Both the position numbers and the translations under genes were made by a program. Below are positions 7,546 through 34,843 of a stretch of 35,009 nucleotides of DNA, one piece after another; the first letter of the stretch is position 1, and the number at the start of each line of letters is the position of its first letter. Under the pieces are notes generated by a model, which ran no database searches, was not told the origin of the DNA, and was given only the letters and a program-made list of their open reading frames with translations. The DNA comes from a bacterium (GTDB taxonomy: Bacteria; Bacteroidota; Bacteroidia; B-17B0; Aurantibacillaceae). The DNA is taken from NCBI GenBank assembly GCA_029945625.1, contig JAQSCW010000016.1, positions 1 through 35,009 on the forward strand. Reading direction: 5' to 3'.

Positions 7546-10500
7546 ATGAGAACTATTTACAAGATCGTACTACTTCCTCTTCTTCTTTTCCTGATTCCCA
7601 ATCAGGGGTTTGCGACGCACATTGTTGGGGGTACTCTCACCTATACTTATAGCGGAGTAGGAAACACCTATTCGGTAACACTCATACTTTACCGCGATTG
7701 TGGCGCCGCTGTGGCATTTCCGGCATCGGCAGACATTACCGTACTTCAGGCTGATGGCACCTTGTTTTCGCCCGATCTTACATTTACACTGCCCGGAGGA
7801 GCTATTTCTGCGATCCCTCTTGTATTACCTCCCTGCGCCACTTCTCCAACGCCCGCGCCTTGTACACAACAACGCGTCTACACTGCAACAGTGAGTATTC
7901 CCGCTTCACCGGGTGGCGTGCATATGTATTTTTCAATTGGTAATAGAAATGCAGCGGCTGTAAATATTGTAAGCCCGCTTACCATGGGTGAAACCTTCTA
8001 TGCGTATATCCCCTGCTACAGAACTAAGTGGGCCGAAGATTTTAATCTCGCTAACGGAACAACTTCTGATGCAGGCCCAACTGCCTGGACCAGAACCTTG
8101 GGTACCACGGCGCCCACCTCGGCCCAGGTAAATCTGGGAGAGTTTGAAGTGGTTGGATCCAACAACGGTATGATGGTGTGGGCTTCTCAGGTGATCCCCA
8201 TTTCTACCTACACGAATGGCGTGAACTTGAGTGTGAATGTGGACAAGGCAGGGGCCAATTTTGGTAATCAAGACAGTCTCAAATTATTTTATGCCATCAA
8301 TGGTGGCGCAAAGGTGGCTTTCCCTGTAAATGGCAGCCTTGTGGGGAATTGGACCGGACCATTGTTTGCCAAGGCAACAGGATTAACGGGGACTAACATT
8401 CAGATCTTTGCCAGAACTAAATTCAACGCCAATAATAATTCCACCGGCAAGACCTATTATTTTGATATGGTATCGGTATATGATAATACCTTTCTCCCTA
8501 ACAGCAATCCCACCTTTGTGAATTTGCCACCTCTTCTTTTTTGCTCCAGCAATTCCTTTTCTTTTAGTCAGGGTGCAGTTGACCTTGATGGGGACTCGTT
8601 GGCGTACACCATGTACACCCCTTACACGTTTTCGCCCACCCCCAGCTTTCCCAACAACGTGGCCTCTATCCCCACAGTTACTTGGGCGGCGGGATATTCT
8701 GCCACCAGCCCTTTCAATTCGGGAGGACCTTCAGTTACCTTAAATCCCACCACCGGTGTGATGACAGGAGTTCAAAACGCCAATGGCGGAAGAGTATTTG
8801 GCGTAAAATGTGCCGAATATCGAAACGGTCTGCTCTTAAGCGAAACAGTGCGTGACTACGAAGTCACGGCGGTCACATGTCCGCCATTTGTTCCCTCTGC
8901 ACCCGGTACCACAGCCAATACACCTTTGTGTGCCGGTCAAAATCTTAATTTAACCGCCACCTTTAGTGCGGGCGCCACGTATAGTTGGACGGGACCGAAT
9001 GGTTTTACCTCTACTTCACAAAACCCGGGCATTGTTGGTACAAGTACCCTTGCTAGCGGCACCTACTCTTGTGCGGTAACGGTTGCCGGATGTACGGGAC
9101 CTCCGGGAACAGTTGTGGTAACCGTGAATCCAAATCCTGCAAGTCCGGTGGTGGCCGGCAACTCTCCTGTATGTTCGGGAACTACCTTAAGTTTAACAGC
9201 AGCCACAACGGCCGGCGCTACCTATAGTTGGGTCGGGCCGAACAGCTTCATATCGGCCGCGCAAAATCCAACGCTGGGTGGTGTTACATTAGCTGCGGCA
9301 GGAACCTATTCACTCATACAAACTGTTTTAGGGTGTACTAGCCCCAACTCCACAGTAACCATTGCGGTTAACCAAACACCGGTTGCGCCCACAGCCGGTG
9401 CCAATACACCCTTATGTCAGGGCACCACCCTCAACCTCAGCGCCACATTTTCAGCCGGCGCAACCTATAGTTGGACAGGGCCGAATAGCTTTACTGCCAA
9501 TACACAAAATCCGAGTCTGGGGACCGTACCTCTTGTCGGAGGCGGAATTTATTCGGTAGCAGCTACCATTGCAGGATGCCCGGGTCCGGCCGGCACCATA
9601 TCGGTAACCGTTATACCAACTCCTGCTGCCCCTGTTGCAGGTGGAACGAGTACTCTTTGTGAAGGACAGAATTTAAGTCTCACCGCTTCGTTTACAACAG
9701 GAGCCACTTACAATTGGGCAGGTCCGAACGGATTTACTTCTACAAATCAAAACCCAAGTATTGCAGGAATAACACTTGCAGGGTCGGGGATCTATTCCGT
9801 GAACGCTACCATTGGAGGTTGTGCCGGACCGAATGCTACTTTTCCGGTAACCGTTAATCCAATTCCCATTGCACCTACCGCAGGAGCCAATACGCCGCTT
9901 TGTGCGGGGCTCACCTTAAGTTTAACGTCCACTTTTTCTGCGGGCGCCACGTATTTATGGAGCGGACCAAACAGTTTTACGTCTAATGTTCAAAACCCCA
10001 CTCTGGCAGGGTCAACCCCCCTCGCCACCGGTCTCTATTCTGTTGCTGCAACCATATTAGGCTGTAGCGGTGTAATAGGAACCGTTAGCGTGAATGTAAG
10101 TATTCCCCCTTCGCCTCCTGTCAACGGCGCGAATACGCCCGTTTGCGTAGGCCAAACCTTAAGCCTTACAGCAACTTTTACGGCAGGATTGTCATACACC
10201 TGGGCCGGACCAAACGCTTTTAGTGCAAACACACAAAACACAAGTATAGCAGGCATCACGCTGGCCGGAAATGGCACCTATTCGGTTTTTGCAACAACCG
10301 CCGGTGGTTGTGCAGGCCCTATCAGCACCATTCCCGTAACCGTTAACCCTATTCCTGCCGCACCTACCGCGGGAGTGAACTCACCTATTTGTGCCGGACA
10401 GAATTTTAACTTCACGGCAGCTCCCGGAGGAGGAACTTTTAGTTGGTCGGGGCCGAATAGTTTTACCTCTAACGTTCAAAATCCGGCCATCGCAGGGGCT

Positions 10501-13500
10501 TCCACCCTCGCTGCAGGAGTTTATTCGGTGTTTAACACGGTGATTGGTTGCACAAGCCCTGCCGGTACTGTTAGCGCGGTCGTAAATCCTATTCCCTCAG
10601 CACCCGTTGCCGGAAGCAATTCCACCTTGTGCGCAGGACAATCTATTAATTTAACTGCCAGTAATGGTGGCACAAGTTATAACTGGACCGGGCCTAATGG
10701 TTTTACATCACTTCTTCAAAATCCGGTGATTCCTGCGGCAACAACGGCGGCAAGCGGTAACTATTCAGTCACCCAAACGATCTTGGGATGTACTGGTCCT
10801 ATGGGCACTACAGGGGTTACCGTAAATCCAATTCCGGCAATTCCAACAGCGGGATCGAACGGCCCGATATGCGCGTTTCAAACCTTAAGTCTCACGGCAC
10901 TTCCAAACGGTTTATCCTACTCTTGGTCGGGCCCGAACAGTTTTACCTCTGCCATTCAAAACCCCTCCATTAGTAGTACTTCCACACTAGCCGCAGGAGC
11001 TTATTCACTAACCGTTACCTCCTTAGGTTGTGCAAGTCCAGCCGGTACTTTGAATGTTGTTGTGAACCCGGCCCCTTTTGCTCCCACCGCAGCAGGTACA
11101 TCCACTTTGTGTGCAGGTGGCACTATTAATTTAAGCGCCGCTTCAACTGCTACCGTGTTTAACTGGACCGGACCGAACGCTTTTACCTCTACACTTCAAA
11201 ATCCCAGTATTGCAGGTGCTAGCACGCTGGCCACGGGAATCTATTCAGTAACTGCCACGCAAGCCGGCTGTACAGGTCCCGCCGGCACAGTAAGTATAAC
11301 AGTTTTTGGTAATCCTTCATCACCCACACTCACCAGCAATTCGCCGGTATGTACAGGACAAATTTTATCGTTCACCGCCAATTTGATAGTGGGAGCTACC
11401 TATGCATGGACAGGGCCAAATGGATTTAGTTCATCCGCGCAAAATCCAACCATTCCCGGAGTTACCAGTGCCGCCGGTGGTTCCTATTCAGTAGCTGTTA
11501 ACGTTTCAGGATGCGGCAGTGCCGTAAACGTTATACCTGTGACGGTAAATTCGACTCCTGCGGCTCCTACCGCCGCAAGCAATGGTCCTTTGTGTGCCGG
11601 CCAAAACCTCAGCCTCACTGCAAATCCCGGAGGGGGCAGCTTCCTCTGGACCGGCCCAAACAGTTTTACCTCAGCACTACAAAACCCAACTATTGCAGGC
11701 ACCTCAACATTAGCAAGCGGAGTATATTCCGTAAATAATACGGTGACCGGTTGTACCGGGGCAATTGGCACTATCAGCGTTACTGTAAACCCTATTCCTG
11801 CCAGTCCCACTGCATCGGGTACATCAACACTCTGTGCCGGACAAAATTTAAGTTTAACAGCAAGCAACGGAGGAACCAGTTACAATTGGACCGGACCGAA
11901 TAGTTTTAGTTCTGTCAGTCAAAATCCGGTGATTGTGGCGGCTACCACGCTGGCTAGCGGAACCTACTCAGTAACTCAAACTATTTTGGGTTGCACCAGT
12001 TCGGCGGGCATAGTTAACGCTACCGTAAATCCAATTCCTGCTGCCCCTACCGTGGGATCAAATGGCCCTATTTGTGCGTTCCAAACCTTAAGTTTAACCG
12101 CCCTTCCAAATGGATTAAGTTATACCTGGTCTGGTCCAAATAGTTTTACGTCAACCTCTCAAAATCCCAACATTGCCGCTGCTTCAACTTTGGCAGGAGG
12201 CACCTATTCATTAATTGTAACTTCCTTGGGCTGCAGTAATACTCCGGGAACAACCTCTGTGGTGGTAAATACCAGTCCTCCCGCCCCAACAGCATCAGGT
12301 ACTTCCACATTATGTACAGGTGGAACTATAAGTTTAACCGCCACCTCCGCCGCCACTATTTTTAGTTGGTCAGGCCCAAATAGTTTTACTTCTTCACTTC
12401 AAAACCCACTTATTGCCGGCGCAACAACGCTTGCCACGGGGATGTATTCTGTTACCGGCACCATTGCAGGTTGTACGGGTCCCGCAGGCATTTTCAGCGT
12501 GACAATTCTGGGTAATCCGTCATCACCCACGTTAACCAGCAATTCACCCTTGTGTACCGGACAAACTTTAAGTTTATCTGCTAATCCTGTTTCGGGTGCC
12601 ACGTATGCGTGGACCGGCCCTAACGGTTTTAACTCTGCCGCACAATCTCCAACCCTTTCGACTGTTACACTGGCTGCAGCAGGTTCTTATTCTGTAATGA
12701 TAAGTGTTGCCGGTTGCGGTAGTGCTGTGAACATCATTGCTGTTTCTGTGAATACCATACCGGCTTCCCCAACTGCCTCCAGCAACGGGCCTATTTGTGC
12801 CGGCCAGAACCTCAATTTAAATGCCGCTGCAAGTGGAACCATTTATGCATGGTCGGGGCCAAACAGTTTTACCTCAGCGCTTCAAAATCCCACTCTCACA
12901 GCTGCTACCACAACAGCTTCGGGAACCTATTCGGTAGTGCAGATTGTGAATGGCTGCTCCAGTGCGGCGGGAACAATAAGTGTAACCATTAACCCCATTC
13001 CCGCGGTCCCTGGTGCCGGTGGCCCGGGAAGTATTTGTGCGGGACAGAATTTAAATTTAACGGCGGGTGGCGCAGGCCCTTCTTATAACTGGAGTGGACC
13101 CAATAGTTTTACCTCCACAGTTCAAAATCCTGTAATTGCCGGAGCGTCGACTCTGGCAAGCGGTGTCTATTCTGTTTCGCAAACTAATTTGGGATGCACC
13201 AGCGCCTTGGCAACTGTGGGCGTTACCGTAAACGCGATCCCAAGTGCACCAACTGCTACTAATAACTCACCCATTTGTGCCTTGCAAACATTAAGTTTGA
13301 GCGCAGCGGGTGCCGGAACCATTTTTGGTTGGACGGGACCTAACGGTTTCAGCTCTGCCGCTCAAAACCCCAACATCACCTCTGCACCTCTAGCCGCAGC
13401 AGGAACCTATTCAGTAACACAAACCATTTTGGGTTGCACAAGCCTGGCCGGCACTGTGGCTGTGACCATTAACCCGGCCGCTCCAACTCCTACAGCAGTG

Positions 13501-16500
13501 AGTAATTCACCACTGTGTTTGGGTCTAAACATTTCATTCACCCAAACGCCAATTAGTGGCGCTACATACAGTTGGACCGGACCAAACGGATTCAATTCAT
13601 CGGTTTTGAATCCCACCATTATTAGTCCTCCCGTAACTGCTTCCGGTAACTACTCGGTTTTTGCAACCGTGGCCGGATGTCCCGGTCAAACGCTTATCGT
13701 ATCTGTGCTGGTTTCTCAACCGGGAACTGTAACTACAGGATCGAGTCAAACCGTTTGTGCCAATAATTCAACAGTGGCCCTTAATGCTACTTCGTCAACC
13801 GGCTCGGGAACCTGGCTCAGCAGTGGAAGCGGCGTGTTCGCCCCAAATGCAGCGAATGGAAATTATATTCCCAGCGCGGGCGATATTACGGCGGGCTCGG
13901 TGACAATGACCCTCACTTCCACCAATAACGGAGGTTGTATATCGGTGAGCAATACACTTTCCGTCTTCTTCACTCCGGCCCCAACAGCTACGGCCATTGC
14001 AACTCAATCGGTTTGCGCCAATAACGCAACCGTTAGTTTGAACGGAACGGTAACGATTGCGAGCGGAGGAATCTGGTCCACTTCCGGAACCGGCTCCTTT
14101 GTGCCTTCAAACACGGTACTCAGCGCCAGTTATGTGCCGAGTGCTGCTGATATAACTGCCGGAACCTTTACCATTTCACTCACCACCACAGGAAACGGCA
14201 ATTGTTTTCCGGTAACAAATTCCAAAGTGATCACGATTACACCTGCCCCTGTGGTAGTGCCCGGACCAAATCCACAGGTGGTATGTAAGAGCAGTCCTAA
14301 CTTCCAATTAAATGGCTCTTCCACTTCAGGATCCGGTATTTGGGCCTCTTCGGGAACAGGAACCTTCTCTTCCATAAACGTCCTCAATCCAATTTATTTT
14401 CCATCGGTAGCCGACACCTCAAATGGTAGCGTCACTCTCACCTTAACGTCCACCAATAATTTAGGCTGCAACAGCGTGAGTCGAACTATGACCTTGGTAT
14501 ACGTCAGCACCATTACCGTTAATGCGGGTGGAAATAAAATAATATGCTCAAACGTAAGTGTGCCTTTGAGTGGTATTGCCACTACCAGCGCAGGCATATG
14601 GACCTCTTCCGGAACGGGTACATTTAGCCCAAGTGCCTCTTCCTTAGTTACAAATTATATTCCGAGTGCGGCTGACGTCTCATTGGGCATTGTCAACCTA
14701 ACCCTCACCACCGCTAATAACGGAGGTTGTGCCCCCATATCGAGTGCGATCATTGTCACCATCACCCCCGGCCCCACTGCAAATGCAGGAGCCAGTCAAA
14801 CAGTATGCGCCAATAATGCCATTTCTATTCTTACAGGATCCTTCACCGGCGCGGGCGGCGGAAAATGGTTAACATCCGGCACCGGAAGTTTTGCGCCTTC
14901 CAGTACCAGCATGATTGTGAGTTATAGCGCGAGTGCAGCCGATACCACAGCAGGAAGCGTGGTCATTACCCTCAGCACAACATCCAACGGCAGTTGTACC
15001 GCAAGCACCAGTACCCTGCTCATCAACTTTAAACCGGCACCGGTTGTGAATGCAGGAGCCGATATTTCAGTGTGCAGAAATAATGCCGTGGTGCTAATCA
15101 ATGGCTATTCATCTACAGGGTCGGGCACATGGAGCGCTTTGGGCTCCGGAACATTGTCTCCGAATAACGCCGTGCTCAGTCCCACGTATACACCAAGTAC
15201 TGCCGACACGACAGCGGGTTTTGTAAAACTGATTCTTACCTCTTTTAATAATGGGTCTTGTAATCCCGTTCGCGACACCGTGAAGATTGTGTTCTCACCC
15301 ATCCCTCAGGTTTTTACCGGAATTAATCCCACCGTTTGCGCCAACAATGCCAATGTGGTGCTCACCGGCACCTCAAGTACAGGATCGGGAAATTGGAGTA
15401 CTCTTGGCGGCGGCACATTTACGCCAAATGGATTGAGTGGCACCTATATTCCCTCAGGAGCTGATATTGCGGCAGGAACAGTCACGCTCCTACTCAACTC
15501 AACAAATAATGGGGGCTGCGCCGCTGTGTCGAAACAAATGACGGTTTCAATTTCAACAGCACCAAGTGTGAATGCAGGAACTGATAAGACACTTTGCTCT
15601 AATTCAATCTCAGTAAGTCTTAGCGGCTCCTACGCTATTTCAACAGGCGCACTATGGAGTTCTTCAGGAACCGGTACTTTTTTACCGGGAAGCGCAAACA
15701 TGACTGCCAATTATCATTTCTCTCCTTCTGATACTAGCGGTGGAACTCTCAAAATCTACATCAGCTCTACAGGAAATGGAAATTGTTTACAAGTGAAAGA
15801 TAGTATGCTGATCACCTTTACAAAAGGCCCCTCTGTAGATGCAGGCCTCAACTTTTCGGTGTGTCCCGGTCTCTCCGCAGCACTCAATGGTTCGAGTTCG
15901 GCGGGAACAGGCTTCTGGTCAACAGCGGGCTCGGGTTTCTTTTCTAACGCCAGTACATTAAATCCTATTTACACACCATCCACAAACGACATCACAAAAG
16001 GTACCGTAAAATTAACCTTGAACTCAGGTCCAACCTCTTGTGGTGCGGCTATGGATAGTTTGGTGCTTTCGTTCAAAACAAAACCGAAAGCCCTATTCAC
16101 GTTTTCAAGTACGTGTTTAGGAACAGCCACCAGTTTCACCGACTTGTCTGTATCTCAGTCCACCCTCAAGGTGGTGTCGTGGTTATGGCGTTTCAACAGC
16201 GATACTTCAACTAAACAGCACCCCAAGTACACATATAAAACGGTGGGACAGAATACAGCGGCACTCATTGTAAGCGATGGCATTTGTTCGGATTCCACCA
16301 AAAGAACTTTGTTTGTGAACCCGCTTCCTAAATCATCCTTCAATTATGAAAATGTGGGACGTTACTCCGTTCAGTTTATTCCTACCGCCACCGTTTCCAA
16401 CGGCGCACTGGTGTCGTGGAATTGGTTATTTGGAGATGCCGGCAATTCAAACGTGAAAGATCCACTGCACGCCTATCCCGATTCGGGTCGCTATGTGGCA

Positions 16501-16842
16501 TCCTTGCTCGTAATGTCGGACTCTAGTTGTGTGGGTAATTTTAGCTACACGGTAATTGTTCCGCCCGTTGGAGAACCCGCTGTGCCTTCCGGGTTCACAC
16601 CAAATGACGATGGCGTAAACGATATTTTGTTTGTAAAAGGAGGACCTTTTAATACGCTCGACTTTAGGGTGTTTAATGAATGGGGCGAGCAAATCTTTCA
16701 ATCCAACATTCAGTCCTCAGGCTGGGATGGCAGGTACAAAGAGGCCCCGCAGCCCGTGGGCAAATTTATATGGACAGTGAATGGGGAATTGATTGACGGA
16801 AAAAAAGTAAAGATGGCGGGTGAAGTAATTTTACACAGATAA
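7546..16842 (+). CDS. 3,098-aa multi-repeat adhesin with CHU_C (gliding-motility-associated) C-terminus
   Basis: Giant surface protein exported by Sec and then T9SS. Order of parts: signal peptide (residues 1-23, ending GFA); an N-terminal domain opening THIVGGTLTYTY, typical of large Bacteroidota surface proteins, interrupted by an inserted stretch at about residues 160-320; 20 Ig-like repeats of about 80 residues (about 450-2063; motifs TPLCAGQ, YSWTGPN, QNP, YSV, LGC); 9 repeats of a second kind (about 2065-2845; motifs QTVCANN, SGTGTF, PSAADITAG, NNGGC); two PKD domains (about 2847-3006; WLWRFNSD and WNWLFGD); and a CHU_C domain (3010-3098; FTPNDDGVNDIL, FNEWGEQIF, GWDGRY). The PorP/SprF-like gene starts 4 bp after the stop, a usual pairing for this class. 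Function beyond adhesion or surface structure is unknown. Confidence 0.92.
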   Translation: MRTIYKIVLLPLLLFLIPNQGFATHIVGGTLTYTYSGVGNTYSVTLILYRDCGAAVAFPASADITVLQADGTLFSPDLTFTLPGGAISAIPLVLPPCATSPTPAPCTQQRVYTATVSIPASPGGVHMYFSIGNRNAAAVNIVSPLTMGETFYAYIPCYRTKWAEDFNLANGTTSDAGPTAWTRTLGTTAPTSAQVNLGEFEVVGSNNGMMVWASQVIPISTYTNGVNLSVNVDKAGANFGNQDSLKLFYAINGGAKVAFPVNGSLVGNWTGPLFAKATGLTGTNIQIFARTKFNANNNSTGKTYYFDMVSVYDNTFLPNSNPTFVNLPPLLFCSSNSFSFSQGAVDLDGDSLAYTMYTPYTFSPTPSFPNNVASIPTVTWAAGYSATSPFNSGGPSVTLNPTTGVMTGVQNANGGRVFGVKCAEYRNGLLLSETVRDYEVTAVTCPPFVPSAPGTTANTPLCAGQNLNLTATFSAGATYSWTGPNGFTSTSQNPGIVGTSTLASGTYSCAVTVAGCTGPPGTVVVTVNPNPASPVVAGNSPVCSGTTLSLTAATTAGATYSWVGPNSFISAAQNPTLGGVTLAAAGTYSLIQTVLGCTSPNSTVTIAVNQTPVAPTAGANTPLCQGTTLNLSATFSAGATYSWTGPNSFTANTQNPSLGTVPLVGGGIYSVAATIAGCPGPAGTISVTVIPTPAAPVAGGTSTLCEGQNLSLTASFTTGATYNWAGPNGFTSTNQNPSIAGITLAGSGIYSVNATIGGCAGPNATFPVTVNPIPIAPTAGANTPLCAGLTLSLTSTFSAGATYLWSGPNSFTSNVQNPTLAGSTPLATGLYSVAATILGCSGVIGTVSVNVSIPPSPPVNGANTPVCVGQTLSLTATFTAGLSYTWAGPNAFSANTQNTSIAGITLAGNGTYSVFATTAGGCAGPISTIPVTVNPIPAAPTAGVNSPICAGQNFNFTAAPGGGTFSWSGPNSFTSNVQNPAIAGASTLAAGVYSVFNTVIGCTSPAGTVSAVVNPIPSAPVAGSNSTLCAGQSINLTASNGGTSYNWTGPNGFTSLLQNPVIPAATTAASGNYSVTQTILGCTGPMGTTGVTVNPIPAIPTAGSNGPICAFQTLSLTALPNGLSYSWSGPNSFTSAIQNPSISSTSTLAAGAYSLTVTSLGCASPAGTLNVVVNPAPFAPTAAGTSTLCAGGTINLSAASTATVFNWTGPNAFTSTLQNPSIAGASTLATGIYSVTATQAGCTGPAGTVSITVFGNPSSPTLTSNSPVCTGQILSFTANLIVGATYAWTGPNGFSSSAQNPTIPGVTSAAGGSYSVAVNVSGCGSAVNVIPVTVNSTPAAPTAASNGPLCAGQNLSLTANPGGGSFLWTGPNSFTSALQNPTIAGTSTLASGVYSVNNTVTGCTGAIGTISVTVNPIPASPTASGTSTLCAGQNLSLTASNGGTSYNWTGPNSFSSVSQNPVIVAATTLASGTYSVTQTILGCTSSAGIVNATVNPIPAAPTVGSNGPICAFQTLSLTALPNGLSYTWSGPNSFTSTSQNPNIAAASTLAGGTYSLIVTSLGCSNTPGTTSVVVNTSPPAPTASGTSTLCTGGTISLTATSAATIFSWSGPNSFTSSLQNPLIAGATTLATGMYSVTGTIAGCTGPAGIFSVTILGNPSSPTLTSNSPLCTGQTLSLSANPVSGATYAWTGPNGFNSAAQSPTLSTVTLAAAGSYSVMISVAGCGSAVNIIAVSVNTIPASPTASSNGPICAGQNLNLNAAASGTIYAWSGPNSFTSALQNPTLTAATTTASGTYSVVQIVNGCSSAAGTISVTINPIPAVPGAGGPGSICAGQNLNLTAGGAGPSYNWSGPNSFTSTVQNPVIAGASTLASGVYSVSQTNLGCTSALATVGVTVNAIPSAPTATNNSPICALQTLSLSAAGAGTIFGWTGPNGFSSAAQNPNITSAPLAAAGTYSVTQTILGCTSLAGTVAVTINPAAPTPTAVSNSPLCLGLNISFTQTPISGATYSWTGPNGFNSSVLNPTIISPPVTASGNYSVFATVAGCPGQTLIVSVLVSQPGTVTTGSSQTVCANNSTVALNATSSTGSGTWLSSGSGVFAPNAANGNYIPSAGDITAGSVTMTLTSTNNGGCISVSNTLSVFFTPAPTATAIATQSVCANNATVSLNGTVTIASGGIWSTSGTGSFVPSNTVLSASYVPSAADITAGTFTISLTTTGNGNCFPVTNSKVITITPAPVVVPGPNPQVVCKSSPNFQLNGSSTSGSGIWASSGTGTFSSINVLNPIYFPSVADTSNGSVTLTLTSTNNLGCNSVSRTMTLVYVSTITVNAGGNKIICSNVSVPLSGIATTSAGIWTSSGTGTFSPSASSLVTNYIPSAADVSLGIVNLTLTTANNGGCAPISSAIIVTITPGPTANAGASQTVCANNAISILTGSFTGAGGGKWLTSGTGSFAPSSTSMIVSYSASAADTTAGSVVITLSTTSNGSCTASTSTLLINFKPAPVVNAGADISVCRNNAVVLINGYSSTGSGTWSALGSGTLSPNNAVLSPTYTPSTADTTAGFVKLILTSFNNGSCNPVRDTVKIVFSPIPQVFTGINPTVCANNANVVLTGTSSTGSGNWSTLGGGTFTPNGLSGTYIPSGADIAAGTVTLLLNSTNNGGCAAVSKQMTVSISTAPSVNAGTDKTLCSNSISVSLSGSYAISTGALWSSSGTGTFLPGSANMTANYHFSPSDTSGGTLKIYISSTGNGNCLQVKDSMLITFTKGPSVDAGLNFSVCPGLSAALNGSSSAGTGFWSTAGSGFFSNASTLNPIYTPSTNDITKGTVKLTLNSGPTSCGAAMDSLVLSFKTKPKALFTFSSTCLGTATSFTDLSVSQSTLKVVSWLWRFNSDTSTKQHPKYTYKTVGQNTAALIVSDGICSDSTKRTLFVNPLPKSSFNYENVGRYSVQFIPTATVSNGALVSWNWLFGDAGNSNVKDPLHAYPDSGRYVASLLVMSDSSCVGNFSYTVIVPPVGEPAVPSGFTPNDDGVNDILFVKGGPFNTLDFRVFNEWGEQIFQSNIQSSGWDGRYKEAPQPVGKFIWTVNGELIDGKKVKMAGEVILHR
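8899..13735 (+). repeat. Array A: 20 Ig-like repeats in the adhesin
   Basis: Twenty units of about 240 nt. Each has two conserved Cys (in LC.GQ and GC), a YSWTGPN strand and a closing V.VNP.P..PT linker. A longer order is visible: units 7-11 resemble units 12-16 one by one (period 1,203 nt, 401 codons), and 17-19 resemble 12-14. Confidence 0.88.
13738..16085 (+). repeat. Array B: 9 repeats of a second type in the adhesin
   Basis: Nine units of about 85 residues, each with VCANN or a variant, a G.W.SSGTGTF strand, P.AADITAG, a TLTSTNNGGC strand and a closing F.PAP linker. They are clearly different from array A and more diverged from one another. Confidence 0.85.
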
Positions 16843-21063: not shown

Positions 21064-21682
21064 GTGAAGTTACGAATTTTTGGTGAATGGTTAAAATGTC
21101 TGAAACTCCAACCCTACAGGCCTTCCACATCAAACTACGTTAATCACAATAATGGCCCTGGGCATCACCCAATTAATTTCGTATGCTAAAGGCATGGAGT
21201 GTGTAGCGAGAATAAACCTGCTAGTCATGCGAAGTAGAACATCTTATTACTGCTAAAGAAAAGATTTAGACTTAGAGGTTACGCCTACCCGACCACGAAT
21301 ACTTATAAGCTCATTTGGGTAAGTCCCTACACCATACACTAGTATGGCTTTCCGAGGGCAAGCCCTTATAACAAATAACAAGATTAAAACACCCCTGGGG
21401 AAAAAATTATGCGATTGATTTTGGGGTTATCATTGGTCGCGATGACTGCCAGTTCTGTGTGAGGGACGGCAAAAACACTGTGGGTTTTTGCGTGAGCTTG
21501 TGCGCGCGCGAAATACTGATTGAGGGAATTGCAAAAAGATGGGGCTGGAACGCACGACCCCTGAAGCAGCACGCGAATTGAATGCCAAGTCCGCTCGTTT
21601 CAGGGGTCACGCCCGCGTTAACGCAAACAAAAAGAGTTTTACTCAAACGGGACTTAACAAAAAAATGGCCTCAGAATGTGTC
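21064..21682. other. Intergenic gap between PIN gene and membrane protein gene
   Basis: The left part (21064-21400) has short interrupted frames on both strands and no recognisable gene. The right part contains copy C of structured repeat family 1 (21457-21614). Confidence 0.5.
21457..21614 (-). repeat. Structured intergenic repeat family 1, copy C
   Basis: Minus-strand copy: GGGCGTG (21614-21608), a 9-bp stem ACCCCTGAA (21607-21599) with TTCAGGGGT (21565-21557), and a closing TCCCTCACAC (21466-21457) in place of the usual TCCCTCACGC. The P1 pairing is weakened by that change. Confidence 0.6.
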
Positions 21683-23491: not shown

Positions 23492-23777
23492 ACCCAGTAA
23501 ATCTATTTCTGGCTAAAGATAGAATTAAATTGAATGGTAAAGGACTGCTGATGTGGTTGTACCAACCCCATTAATGAAAAGTCAAGATGCCGCCACCCAC
23601 TTCCCTCATGAGTAGTATAGCAATTTCCTGAATGTTCTTCTATCAATTTCCAAATCCACCAGCGGTGCGACAGAAGCCCGGTTGGTTCTGGGTCAAGCGA
23701 AAAAATTAGGGAGAAAATTTTTGAGCCTGCCCCCATGAAGAGAAAAACTTACCAAGAAAACTTCCCGGTTTTTCTGA

Positions 23778-23900
23778 TTTGGGCCTGCCCCCGTCTTTCT
23801 TTTTTTATTCCGTTGGGCGGGGTCGCGCTTTCCGTTCCAAGTCCTCGCCACGCAAAGAGACAGGCGTGGCTGTGGGCTTTCCACTACAATCGCTCACGCA
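23778..23900 (+). repeat. Structured intergenic repeat family 1, copy A
   Basis: Begins TTTGGGCCTGCCCCC, continues GGGGTCGCGCTTTCC and ends ATCGCTCACGC. A perfect 7-bp stem GCCACGC (23847-23853) with GCGTGGC (23864-23870) forms the second arm. GCCTG in place of GCGTG breaks the P1 stem, so this looks like a decayed copy. Confidence 0.6.
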
Positions 23901-24059
23901 GTAAACAATCTGTTTTCAATTATCTAAAAAAATCCAAGGAATAAATTAGTTACATTTCCCCAACGATTCCGATTGATCCTTAGTTCTCGATAACCTTTGC
24001 TTGAGTGAGAAGGTTTGGTGGGCCGATCGATCCGGTTTTCTCGGAAAGGGAACGGGTGC

Positions 24060-24200
24060 TTCGCGAGAGGGATTGAGGCGGCAGCCTTGCGAATGAAAGT
24101 AAAAAATGCCGTAGCAGCGAGGCGGCTGACGACAGGAAGCCACCGGAGCGCTCAGGCATTTTACTTTCAGAGCAAGCTACAGCCGAAAGCCCGACAGCCA
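24060..24200 (-). repeat. Structured intergenic repeat family 1, copy D with long hairpin
   Basis: On the minus strand it has GGCTGTCGGGCTTTC (from 24199) and TCAATCCCTCTCGCG (down to about 24062). Its second arm is long: TGAAAGTAAAAAATGCC (24094-24110 on plus) pairs with GGCATTTTACTTTCA (24155-24169) except for two bulged A, and GGCGGCT with AGCCACC pairs inside that (one mismatch). Confidence 0.6.
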
Positions 24201-24252
24201 TGAAGCAAATACCCCACCATTTAAGCAAACATTTGATTCATGGGTGGCTCGC

Positions 24253-24287
24253 CAAAAAAAAAGGGCCGTTTCAAAAAAACGACCCTT
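24253..24287 (-). terminator. Rho-independent terminator of the phaE-like gene
   Basis: On the minus strand AAGGGTCGTTT (24287-24277), a 5-nt loop, AAACGGCCCTT (24271-24261): an 11-bp stem with one G-T pair, followed by a run of T (24260-24254). It begins 22 bp after the phaE-like stop codon. Confidence 0.9.
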
Positions 24288-29463: not shown

Positions 29464-29507
29464 TTTATTGGTTTGTTAATTTGGTGGTTTGTTCCTCTTT
29501 TTTATTT

Positions 29508-29645
29508 GGGCGTGCCCCCTGAAGCGAAAGCCATTTTCCAATCTTTTAGCAGGCTTTCTGCTTCAGGTGTCGGGCTTTCCGTTCCAAGTCCTCGGCTTCG
29601 TTCCTCAGCCTCCGAGCTTTCCACTGCAATCCCTCACGCGAAGCT
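29508..29645 (+). repeat. Structured intergenic repeat family 1, copy B (best preserved)
   Basis: GGGCGTG (29508-29514) can pair with CACGC (29635-29639). Arm 2 is a long hairpin: CCTGAAGC (29518-29525) with GCTTCAGG (29560-29567) and GAAAGCC (29526-29532) with GGCTTTC (29552-29558), one bulged T. Then TCGGGCTTTCCGTTCCAAG, a short arm around CTCGG/CCGAG, and CACTGCAATCCCTCACGC. Confidence 0.75.
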
Positions 29646-29829
29646 GGCACTCATTGCGGCCAGTAACATCCCCAAAATCTTCATTAATATTATTTTTCCT
29701 TGGCATATTTTTGCAATCATTTCTATTAATTGTTTCCGGCTTCCCTAATTCTTAATTTTTAATTCATAATTTTTAATTTTCAATTCATCTAAGCACGCAG
29801 AGACGCAAAGTTCGCAAAGAAAAATCTGT

Positions 29830-30324: not shown

Positions 30325-30352
30325 TTTTTAGTGCTTCGTTTTAAGTTCCATA

Positions 30353-30540
30353 TTTCAAGTTTCGGGTTACAAGTTCCGAGTTACGGGTTACAAGTTCCGG
30401 GTTTACCATTCCTGCCAACTGCTCCCCCCTACTGCCCATTGCCTACTCCTCACTGCCCATCGCTACTGGCTACTGCCTACTTTTTTTGACTCCCTCTTAG
30501 TGTCCCTTAGTGCTCTATGTGTCTTAGTGATAGAGTGGTT
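30353..30540. repeat. Degenerate short repeats upstream of padR
   Basis: 30353-30405 is a run of the word (C/T)AAGTT(C)CG(G)GTTAC with variations; 30415-30480 repeats TACTGCCCATTGCC-like words; 30495-30540 is the reverse of the CACTAAG family (CTTAGTGTCCCTTAGTG). No gene is visible. Confidence 0.6.
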
Positions 30541-30553
30541 CTTAACACCGCCC

Positions 30554-30925
30554 CTACTTCCCATCCACGTATTGGAAATTAAGCATCACACTGTGCGCTA
30601 CATTTTCCTTAATTTGTGGCAGCTTAAAAGTAGAAAATTGTCTTTCAATTTCCTGCTTCAATTTTAGATCTTTGGTTTTTGCATAGGCATAAGTAACTTT
30701 CCCCAATTTATCGGTGGTAAAAATCACTTCCACTTTTACCGCTGCGTTTGCTTTTGTTTCGCTGTAAGGGATCAAAATGCTTGGGAATTTGAAGTAATTA
30801 GCGATGCTCTTTTCAGGAGAAGGAGGCACATTGCCTTTTGGGGTGTTGTTTGAAATGGCCATTAAACTTGATAATGATAATGCAAGAATAAGACCCAGGC
30901 TGATGATGTTTTTTGATGTTTTCAT
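30554..30925 (-). CDS. Small secreted protein, TonB-C-like
   Basis: 123 aa. A signal peptide covers residues 1 to about 25 (SLGLILALSLSSLMA). The mature part (about 45-120) is EVIFTTDKLGKVTYAYAKTKDLKLKQEIERQF and a closing VMLNFQYV strand, a beta-alpha-beta layout like the C-terminal domain of TonB and related periplasmic proteins (V.F.....G.V..... of that family). No transmembrane anchor or proline-rich linker follows the signal, so it is not a full TonB. Probably periplasmic. It stands alone, flanked by repeat stretches. Function unknown. Confidence 0.75.
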   Translation of the reverse strand: MKTSKNIISLGLILALSLSSLMAISNNTPKGNVPPSPEKSIANYFKFPSILIPYSETKANAAVKVEVIFTTDKLGKVTYAYAKTKDLKLKQEIERQFSTFKLPQIKENVAHSVMLNFQYVDGK

Positions 30926-31059
30926 TTTTTTTAGTTTTTTAATTTGTTTGTTAATTGATTTAATTTTTTGCTTGTTATTACTGTTTCGAGTTCCTTGTTA
31001 CTTGTTTCAAGTTCCGTGTTTCAAGTTTCGTGTTTCGTGTTACAGGTTGGTTCTCTAAA

Positions 31060-31108
31060 ATCGAGCACGGCAAAAGTCCTGTGGACTTTTGAGCGGGCCC
31101 GTGCGCCA
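31060..31108 (+). repeat. Structured intergenic repeat family 2, copy 2
   Basis: Inner stem AAAAGTCC (31072-31079), loop TGT, GGACTTTT (31083-31090), 8 bp perfect. Outer stem GCACGG (31064-31069) with CCGTGC (31099-31104). GAGCGGG follows the inner stem as GAGCGAG does in copy 1. Confidence 0.7.
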
Positions 31109-31373
31109 GCCTTGCCTTAACTCTGCGCCCTTTGTGCCTTCCTTTGTGTCCTTTGTGCCCGCCTGACCGACTAAATGTATTCAATAGGTCGGGCAGGGTT
31201 AAAAAATCTGAGTTCCGTGTTTCAAGTTCCGTGTTTCAAGTTCCGTGTTTAGAGTTCCGTGTTTGTACTTGGTATTTAATTCCTATAGCTATTAGGCGAT
31301 ACAAATATACATATTTTATTTAGTACCATGCAACACATAGTACTAAAATATTTATACAATACACTTAACTCAT

Positions 31374-33049: not shown

Positions 33050-33079
33050 AGGCCGGCGATTAAACGGTCGGCACGGTCA

Positions 33080-33130
33080 TCCGCTAGCCCTTCATCCTGA
33101 ACAGGTACTAATGAACCGGCCTCATAGAAT
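33080..33130. repeat. Intergenic repeat family 3, copy 1
   Basis: TCCGCTAGCCCTTCATCCTG, then ACCGGCCTCATAGAATTTTT. Divergent in the middle from the other two copies. Confidence 0.7.
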
Positions 33131-33404
33131 TTTTCGTTGCGCACGCTGATGGATCCCATTACTATTCAACACAGAGTCACAGGGAGACAGAGGACACTGA
33201 GCTTTTTTTTTGAGACAAAAAACAATTAGGTTCAAAGGGTTCAAATATTCAAGGTTCAAAAGGTTCAAATTTGAAAGATTAGTGTTACCCTATTCAACAC
33301 AGAGGCGCTGGAAATTAAAAATTAAGGATCAAAAAATTAAGAATGGTTTTTGTTAATGACCAGAAAGTGTCATTCTGACAAAAGAAGCCGGCTATCATTA
33401 TTTC

Positions 33405-33457
33405 TCCGCTAGCCCTTCCCGGTGAACGGGCACTGTTGGACCGTCCTCATAAAATTT
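33405..33457. repeat. Intergenic repeat family 3, copy 2
   Basis: TCCGCTAGCCCTTCCCGG, then GGGCACTGTTGGACCGTCCT and CATAAAATTTT. Same orientation as the other copies. Confidence 0.75.
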
Positions 33458-34770: not shown

Positions 34771-34790
34771 CATCAGCATCCAGCACCTAC

Positions 34791-34843
34791 TCCGCTAGCC
34801 CTTCCCGGCAGAAGGGTACTGGTGGACCGGCCTCATAAAGTTG
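34791..34843. repeat. Intergenic repeat family 3, copy 3
   Basis: TCCGCTAGCCCTTCCCGG, GAAGGGTACTGGTGGACCGG, CCTCATAAAGTT. CCCTTC and GAAGGG can form a 6-bp stem. Confidence 0.75.

What the first reader, a model, noticed from the sequence alone, without database searches (positions are those of the whole stretch)
29508..29645. Structured intergenic repeat family 1 with a closed multi-arm fold
Four diverged copies lie in this window (21457-21614 minus, 23778-23900 plus, 24060-24200 minus, 29508-29645 plus). Fixed blocks GGGCGTG, TCGGGCTTTCC and ATCCCTCACGC frame two variable arms that are inverted repeats of different sequence in each copy. GCGTG pairs with CACGC to close the fold. Variable but self-complementary arms mean structure, not sequence, is kept, as in a mobile element end, a protein-bound DNA fold or an RNA.
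Basis: partly seen in the sequence, partly recalled or inferred. Interest (0 to 1): 0.55.

Follow-up and report, generated by a model that had tools for sequence, protein, structure and literature searches.

The report
Y-shaped Flavo-1 repeat, probably DNA-level
A DNA repeat scattered between genes keeps a precise Y-shaped folded form while its letters change; its stem is the mysterious "Flavo-1 RNA", and the evidence here suggests it works as folded DNA that spreads in the genome rather than as an RNA.

Summary
All four copies match a covariance model of the family (D and B-type sequences were in its seed). In 90 copies from other genomes, none used in the model, 94.7% of pair cells pair and 31 of 34 pairs show compensatory change. 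The fold is a three-way junction: closing stem P1, variable arm P2, and stem P3, in which two near-identical boxes pair with each other below a second variable arm. P3, read on the opposite strand, is Rfam Flavo-1 (RF01705), listed as an sRNA of unknown function. Copy D is below Rfam's cut-off; two Y-type copies in a genus relative exceed it. P1 and P2 lie outside the Rfam model. Favouring a DNA-level element: wobble pairs are almost absent outside two or three motif columns, orientation to genes is random, orthologous sites are empty, and copy B's subfamily sits in a MITE with 8-bp target duplications. Yet some copies persist at orthologous sites, so structure is selected. Copies also occur in Treponema and on B. 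thetaiotaomicron plasmid p5482. The recognising protein is unknown; RAYT transposases fit poorly.

The parts
29502..29639 (+). copy D, complete Y-shaped element (T-run, P1, P2, box 1, arm 2, box 2, P1')
   Evidence: R1 131.4 bits; D is one of the eight seed sequences
29510..29514 (+). P1 5' side GCGTG; pairs with CACGC at 29635-29639
   Evidence: structure; helix P1 99.3% paired in 90 independent copies, 5 of 5 pairs with change on both sides
29635..29639 (+). P1 3' side CACGC
   Evidence: as above
29516..29569 (+). P2, variable arm 1 (outer sides 29516-29525 and 29560-29569)
   Evidence: 10 of 10 pairs with change on both sides
29572..29591 (+). box 1, GGGCTTTCCGTTCCAAGTCC, lower P3
   Evidence: pairs with box 2; compensatory GGG:CCC to GCG:CGC and T:A to C:G among the seeds; position
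29594..29610 (+). variable arm 2, apical P3
29614..29633 (+). box 2, GAGCTTTCCACTGCAATCCC
   Evidence: position
29564..29649 (-). sub-threshold match to Rfam Flavo-1 RF01705 (covers P3 only)
   Evidence: 32.7 bits, gathering 42, E 1.8e-5; alignment of the family to a relative's copy
23775..23899 (+). copy B, Y-element of the amplified subfamily
   Evidence: 106.7 bits
23690..23979 (.). MITE carrying copy B; terminal inverted repeats 23690-23712 and 23957-23979
23682..23689 (.). left target-site duplication of the MITE, 7 of 8 bases equal to 23980-23987
23980..23987 (.). right target-site duplication of the MITE
24063..24260 (-). copy C, Y-element with closing stem GCGAG:CTCGC
   Evidence: 71.0 bits
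21490..21620 (-). copy A, diverged Y-element; frame and P2 kept, inner part not aligned to the model
   Evidence: 28.6 bits, E 1.4e-6

Best explanation
The feature is a copy of a dispersed intergenic element, mostly about 80-240 bp, whose core is the sequence that Rfam calls Flavo-1. It is most likely a DNA-level structure: one strand (or both, as a cruciform) folds into a Y of three stems, and an unidentified protein recognises the internal loop formed by the two paired boxes plus the closing stem. Recognition keeps the boxes and the strict complementarity and leaves the arm sequences free. Copies spread between sites, in this genome largely as passengers of a MITE with about 23-bp imperfect inverted repeats and 8-bp target duplications, and then persist at some sites for long periods. 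Shown: the fold, its conservation, dispersal, absence from orthologous sites, the MITE for copy B, random orientation to genes, near-absence of wobble pairs. Inferred: that the acting molecule is DNA, that a protein binds it, and that copies such as D move by themselves.
For: Covariation: 8 seed copies, 17 of 34 pairs compensatory, 0 of 500 shuffles; 110 copies, 32 of 34; 90 independent copies, 31 of 34, 94.7% paired against 37-55% when slid. Pairing is almost strictly Watson-Crick: leaving out two motif columns G.T 24 and A.C 44 in 110 copies, leaving out three G.T 13 and A.C 13 in 90 copies; in P1 alone 76 and 52 alternative Watson-Crick cells against 2 and 6 G.T; 31 tRNAs from fetched loci have 47 G.T in 638 pairs. 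Orientation to flanking genes ++26, --21, +-27, -+24, 98 classified of 128. Empty sites: the genes flanking D are 15-99 bp apart in 29 of 29 relatives, 489 bp here; the pair flanking B and C 129-352 bp apart in the 10 relatives, of 29 loci, where both genes were found together, 820 bp here. MITE: 24 complete end pairs, 8-bp flanks 166 of 192 bases equal, permuted mean 62.8 and maximum 94; 19 of 24 have at least 7 of 8; 71 ends in the genome, 0 in the reversed control. Published passage (PMC9723704): Flavo-1 hits lie indistinctly in sense or antisense, many outside transcribed regions.
Against: Plain-hairpin copies without P1 and P2 sit between sufD and sufS in seven genera, and a Y copy beside ssb in four species, so at those sites it does not behave as a transient insertion. 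sufD-sufS is probably one operon, where the element would be in the mRNA. In the 14 classified copies of the Flavo-1 search set (A5), genes run ++ 9 times and -- 3 times (counted by eye), a possible sense bias. No bias to a replication strand (20:12 against 15:15, p 0.44), as a lagging-strand single-strand mobile element might show. No mobilising gene found. The D insertion is 489 bp and holds other repeats, so a precise unit insertion was not shown. Motif columns hold T.G (R1 strand) and C.A (Rfam strand), so neither strand is free of wobble. ARAGORN reported no mismatched tRNA pairs, so the A.C part of that control is not informative.
Confidence: 0.5

Rival explanations
1. It is a structured RNA, as Rfam and Weinberg et al. 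2010 class it (Flavo-1): the fold acts in transcripts, as an sRNA or as an element within mRNAs.
For: Rfam match on the opposite strand; conserved internal loop; plain-hairpin copies with compensatory change in what is probably one operon at sufD-sufS, where however the Rfam strand is antisense to the genes; several 5' transcribed regions coincide with Flavo-1 hits in PMC9723704 (passages).
Against: Wobble pairs are nearly absent outside motif columns. Orientation to genes is random, with 24 of 98 classified copies between divergent genes. The same paper found hits indistinctly in sense or antisense. The commonest wobble (T.G at box 1:box 2) is a wobble on the strand opposite to Rfam's and an A.C mismatch on Rfam's strand.
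Confidence: 0.25
2. It is a REP of a RAYT (Y1 HUH transposase), mobilised in trans as single-stranded DNA.
For: Two RAYT-like genes in this genome, one of them starting 294 bp beyond a B copy. Quentin et al. 2018 report atypical structures flanking Bacteroidetes subclass 2.6 genes (PMC6006769, passages and one section). Within the genus, copy number and RAYT number correlate weakly (rho 0.44, p 0.03, n 25).
Against: No correlation over 41 genomes (rho -0.13, p 0.41); 5 genomes have copies and no RAYT match, 9 the reverse. Of the 20 RAYT loci fetched (one per genome, not all matches; flanks up to 1.5 kb) only 1 holds even a weak match (E 0.084). The palindromes beside the C29 RAYT are different sequences, by eye. 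No replication-strand bias.
Confidence: 0.08
3. It is a decaying by-product of MITEs and recombination without function of its own; complementarity reflects recent copying.
For: Many copies in this genome lie in MITEs; arms are shared between copies; copy number ranges from 0 to 56 within the genus.
Against: Structure is kept with compensatory change at orthologous sites across species and genera and over distant taxa. Mismatches inside the boxes recur across the alignments inspected and are not corrected, so simple palindrome correction does not explain it.
Confidence: 0.15

Closest known systems
Flavo-1 RNA, Rfam RF01705 (Weinberg et al. 2010)
   Same: Same P3: two boxes paired with internal mismatches and a variable apical arm. 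Two Y-type copies of one genus relative (G001) score 51.5 and 51.0 bits, over the cut-off of 42.
   Different: Opposite strand; the window's form has P1 and P2, which the 76-position model lacks. Copy D scores 32.7, and the other Y copies in the 16 loci are below the cut-off. Of 18 high-scoring Flavo-1 copies aligned, 15 show no P2 pairs.
REP sequences of RAYT/TnpA_REP, including subclass 2.6 of Bacteroidetes (Quentin et al. 2018)
   Same: Dispersed intergenic hairpins; in the window's family also constant internal mismatches and a conserved 5' foot.
   Different: Only 1 weak match beside 20 RAYT genes; three-way junction; no GT[AG]G foot, though the paper says subclass 2.6 lacks it too.
MITEs with 8-bp target duplications
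   Same: Copy B is one of 24 complete pairs of terminal inverted repeats, 19 with at least 7 of 8 duplicated bases.
   Different: Only the B subfamily; no autonomous element with these ends was recognised, by eye, among the 71 ends (one could be collapsed in the assembly).
Integron attC sites (recalled)
   Same: Structure kept over sequence, variable terminal arm, paired boxes with unpaired spacers.
   Different: No RYYYAAC/GTTRRRY ends in the alignments; copies in both orientations between ordinary genes.

Membership tests
Flavo-1 (RF01705) | gathering score of 42 bits | tested here: not met
   copy D 32.7 bits. Of 16 Y-type loci only two distinct copies, both in G001, pass (51.5 and 51.0); four ssb-side Y copies 30.3-34.1. 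36 of 296 phylum genomes have a match over it; 10 matches at E <= 0.001 in the window's genome
Flavo-1 (RF01705) | pairing scheme of the Rfam model (box 1 with box 2, apical arm) | tested here: met
   same pairs
Flavo-1 (RF01705) | acts as an RNA gene | not testable with these tools
   no expression data held; indirect evidence against
REP of a RAYT | GT[AG]G foot at the hairpin base | tested here: not met
   foot is a T-run plus GG; definition and subclass 2.6 exception from PMC6006769
REP of a RAYT | copies flank the transposase gene | tested here: not met
   1 weak match at 20 of the RAYT loci; one B copy beside a RAYT-like gene in the own genome
MITE | terminal inverted repeats and target-site duplication | tested here: met
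   for copy B only
MITE | the same ends at copy D | tested here: not met
   on contig C16 only 23690 and 23957 match the end pattern with up to 3 mismatches
integron attC | RYYYAAC and GTTRRRY ends | tested here: not met
   ends are GCGNN...NNCGC in the alignments read; definition recalled; cassette arrays not searched for

The most novel reading that the evidence does not exclude
Flavo-1 is not an RNA but the best-known part of a family of protein-read folded DNA elements. The Y form has a constant frame (P1, P2, GGG:CCC) and exchangeable inner modules. At least two modules exist (the Flavo-1 type and a type II without an Rfam match over cut-off), both occur at one orthologous site in different genera, and the family spans Bacteroidota and Treponema and rides plasmids.
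Probability: 0.25. Interest if true: 0.75.

Novelty: new variant of a known kind. Interest (0 to 1): 0.55.

Why it matters
Flavo-1 has been listed as a likely RNA since 2010 without a function (PMC2864571, table passage); a 2022 review names it among abundant sRNA families (PMC9029176, passages). If it acts as DNA, annotations across Bacteroidota count a structured DNA repeat as a small RNA. The wider Y fold, the type II sister and a copy on a plasmid of the tractable B. thetaiotaomicron make the question directly testable.

Tried and rejected
RAYT as mobiliser: searched the own genome and 40 relatives, correlated and looked beside 20 RAYT genes; not supported. Lagging-strand insertion bias: two complete genomes, 62 of 79 matches used (those over the Rfam cut-off), no bias; GC skew was sampled from 20 stretches of 20 kb per genome, so ori and ter are rough. 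Intrinsic terminator: rejected from the sequence, since the T-run precedes the fold; no terminator scan was run. Rfam at the default threshold found nothing in the window; only the lower threshold on a short stretch showed Flavo-1. Phages: no match to copy D.

Literature: the searches listed no paper that I saw to describe the extended fold, its MITE or Treponema copies. I saw listings, and passages of four papers (PMC2864571, PMC9723704, PMC9029176, PMC6006769, the last with one section). One search listed 20 of 181 papers and 20 of 28; the latter looked unrelated. Supplements were not available, and the additional files of Weinberg 2010 may show a larger motif.

Limits of the counts. Gene calls for the orientation test come from a simple ORF caller (longest ORFs of at least 90 codons with little overlap). 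Of 128 copies, 20 had no such ORF on one side within the fetched stretch and 10 were more than 700 bases from one, and these were dropped. The strand test leaves out two motif columns in A4 and three in A6; the totals with them are G.T 115, A.C 46 and G.T 96, A.C 39. The seeds of R1 come from this genome, so copy numbers elsewhere are lower bounds. R1 finds only 2 of the sufD-sufS copies; Rfam's own model finds them.

Full report
What was checked. The window is contig C16 of a 4.1-Mb, 55-contig genome. A BLAST of copy D against that genome gave 54 places. Eight full copies (L002 = copy D, L003, L004, L008, L013, L016, L029, L048) were aligned (A2). I wrote a structure by hand: P1 = GCGTG with CACGC; P2 = arm 1; P3 = box 1 paired with box 2 and capped by arm 2. 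Box 1 and box 2 are almost the same sequence (about GGGCTTTCCRCTNCAATCC). Laid antiparallel they form GGG:CCC, TT:AA, GC:GC, AA:TT and GTCC:GGGC pairs separated by recurrent mismatches, a two-fold symmetric internal loop. The B copies change GGG:CCC to GCG:CGC, L048 changes AGTCC:GGGCT to AATC:GGATT, and L016 changes T:A to C:G in P1. Counting gave 94.0% of cells paired, 17 of 34 pairs with change on both sides, and 0 of 500 shuffles as high on any measure.

Wider sample. The model R1 hit 29 of 41 genomes: the own genome with 56 matches, 18 of 24 others of the genus, and 10 of 16 from other families of the class; copy number within the genus runs from 0 to 56 (stricter filters, and the seeds come from this genome, so other counts are lower bounds). 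Alignment A4 has 110 matches from 97 loci, 9 of the loci from the own genome and including the seeds: 96.2% paired, 32 of 34 pairs with change on both sides, covariation score 0.485 against 0.134 shuffled. One of its five measures, further pair types, did not exceed the shuffles (253 of 500). None was used in the model: 94.7% paired, 31 of 34 pairs, 0 of 500 shuffles on every measure. Sources with a match include Flavobacterium, Aquimarina, Algibacter, Capnocytophaga, Chitinophagaceae, Mucilaginibacter, Tannerellaceae and Bacteroidales. Outside the phylum they include Treponema sp. Marseille-Q4130 on a 212-kb contig (L415, 58.6 bits, closing stem GGGTT:AACCC) and two Spirochaetes MAGs (L345, L382), where binning error is possible; a Rickettsiales MAG (L339) and a third Spirochaetes MAG (L371) matched the pattern but not R1.

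Identity. At the default threshold Rfam gives nothing in the window. At a lower threshold copy D matches RF01705 Flavo-1 on the minus strand at 29564-29649 with 32.7 bits, below the cut-off of 42. Of 16 loci with Y copies (some overlapping), only two distinct copies pass, both in genus relative G001 (L070/L096 51.5 bits, L105 51.0). The Rfam model has the same P3 pairs and neither P1 nor P2. A phylum search with RF01705 found 44 of 296 genomes at E <= 0.001, 36 over the cut-off, and 0 of 14 control genomes. Of the 19 listed loci (of 30 fetched), 18 match R1; in 15 of these 18 no P2 pairs are aligned, and several shown are a plain hairpin with TCCCG:CGGG or TCCTG:CAGG at its base. The window's form is therefore a three-way variant of Flavo-1, sub-threshold as a formal member. 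Weinberg et al. 2010 (PMC2864571, table passage) list Flavo-1 as a likely RNA, not cis-regulatory, in Bacteroidetes. The Flavobacterium psychrophilum transcriptome paper (PMC9723704, passages) says its hits are indistinctly in sense or antisense and many lie outside transcribed regions, while several 5' transcribed regions coincide with hits.

DNA or RNA. Leaving out two motif columns, 110 copies hold 24 G.T and 44 A.C cells, against 2944 Watson-Crick cells over all columns. Leaving out three, 90 copies hold 13 and 13. The 31 tRNAs found in the fetched loci hold 47 G.T in 638 pairs (that program reported no mismatches, so the A.C part is not informative). In P1 alone alternative Watson-Crick pairs number 76 (A4) and 52 (A6), against 2 and 6 G.T and 3 and 2 A.C. 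An RNA kept for its fold would be expected to pass through G.U pairs. The motif columns are mixed: T.G in 58 and 33 cells of A4 and 66 and 17 of A6 favours the strand opposite to Rfam's; C.A in 24 cells of A6 favours Rfam's. Genes around 98 classifiable copies of 128 run ++26, --21, +-27, -+24 relative to the R1 strand. The subset from the Flavo-1 search (A5) is 9 ++ against 3 --, a hint the other way.

Mobility. D lies between a PspC-type gene and a PadR-type gene. They are 489 bp apart here and 15-99 bp apart in 29 of 29 genus relatives. The genes flanking B and C are 820 bp apart here and 129-352 bp in the 10 relatives, of 29 loci, where both were found together. R1 found no copy at these two junctions in relatives; L141 has one on the other side of the g24309 orthologue, and L164 and L168 have weaker ones elsewhere. 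Copy B lies in a 290-bp MITE. The own-genome loci hold 24 complete end pairs; their 8-bp flanks have 166 of 192 bases equal, against a permuted mean of 62.8 and maximum of 94, and 19 of 24 have at least 7 of 8. The end pattern occurs 71 times in the genome and 0 times reversed. D has no such ends, and its 489-bp interval holds further repeats, so the unit that moved there is not defined.

Persistence and module change. A Y copy next to ssb (Pfam SSB in L089 and L094) is shared by four genus relatives (L089, L094, L101, L223) with compensatory changes, for example GGCGTT...AACGC to GGCCTT...AAGGC; on its other side lies what looks, by eye, like an rRNA-operon leader. Between sufD and sufS (SufBD and aminotransferase V domains), 29 of 30 loci have both genes. 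I scanned nine of them with Rfam: seven, of seven genera (L459, L460, L462, L463, L464, L470, L471), carry Flavo-1 over the cut-off, 48.6 to 81.6 bits, and L465 and L468 do not. These are plain hairpins; R1 finds only two of them. By eye one further genus carries type II in the same place (L466; Flavo-1 22.7 bits), L468 looks like a decayed type II, and 20 of the 29 show no copy. L465 looks like a loss between two CTAT repeats, as its spacer equals the first 17 bases of L463. Type II (GGCTTTCGCCACTCGCTC...GAGCTCAAACAATGGCTCAATCC) sits in the Y frame in 8 further distinct copies. In four type II loci Rfam gave no match over cut-off; besides the Flavo-1 match at L466 there was one other sub-threshold match, ST7-OT3_1 at L021, 28.9 bits, cut-off 50.

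Mobiliser. RAYT genes do not track the copies over 41 genomes (rho -0.13; within the genus 0.44, p 0.03) and 20 RAYT loci show 1 weak match beside the gene; one B copy lies 294 bp before a RAYT-like gene in this genome. Strand against replication direction shows no bias over 62 matches in two complete genomes.

A tractable copy. B. thetaiotaomicron VPI-5482 plasmid p5482 carries a complete minimal Y at record position 31041-31128 (72.9 bits). A search with copy D matched 20 plasmid records of Bacteroides, Phocaeicola and Parabacteroides, 18 typed conjugative; R1 was run on p5482 only.

Verdict. Real, structured, a Y-shaped variant of the Flavo-1 family, more likely a DNA-level dispersed element than an RNA. 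Mechanism of action and movement remain inferred.

Noticed in passing
genome G000, contig ends of C1, C5, C11, C12, C15, C19, C22, C32, C33, C39, C40, C41, C42, C44, C45, C51, C54, C55: MITE end sequences lie within about 400 bases of at least 21 contig ends (contig lengths, that of C15 inferred from a cut locus), so the MITE seems to be a frequent cause of assembly breaks in this genome.
   Followed up: partly
L017, L021, L030, L141, L168, L206, L420, L454, L466: Type II inner module in the same or a similar frame, with no Rfam match over cut-off in the four loci scanned.
   Followed up: partly
L049 3868-4620 and L050 1400-2398; L055: Two RAYT-like genes; the one on C29 is flanked by other palindromes, the one on C30 is followed by fragments of itself, and further fragments start contig C42.
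   Followed up: no
L116, between g27673 and g29950 orthologues: One relative has a different short hairpin (TGAAG...CTTCA) at the same junction that holds copy D here.
   Followed up: no
window 30331-31283: Tandem 14-base repeats (GTTCCGTGTTTCAA type) in three clusters.
   Followed up: no
window 33079-33131, 33404-33456, 34790-34842: Three copies of a 53-base repeat, CTCCGCTAGCCCTTC..., two of them 77% and 85% identical to the reference copy.
   Followed up: no
L106, L170, L206, L208, L224 (inverted pairs); L175, L177, L180, L186 (tandem): Y-elements sometimes occur in close pairs or triplets, in inverted or direct order.
   Followed up: no
window 7546-16842: A single open reading frame of 3098 codons.
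   Followed up: no
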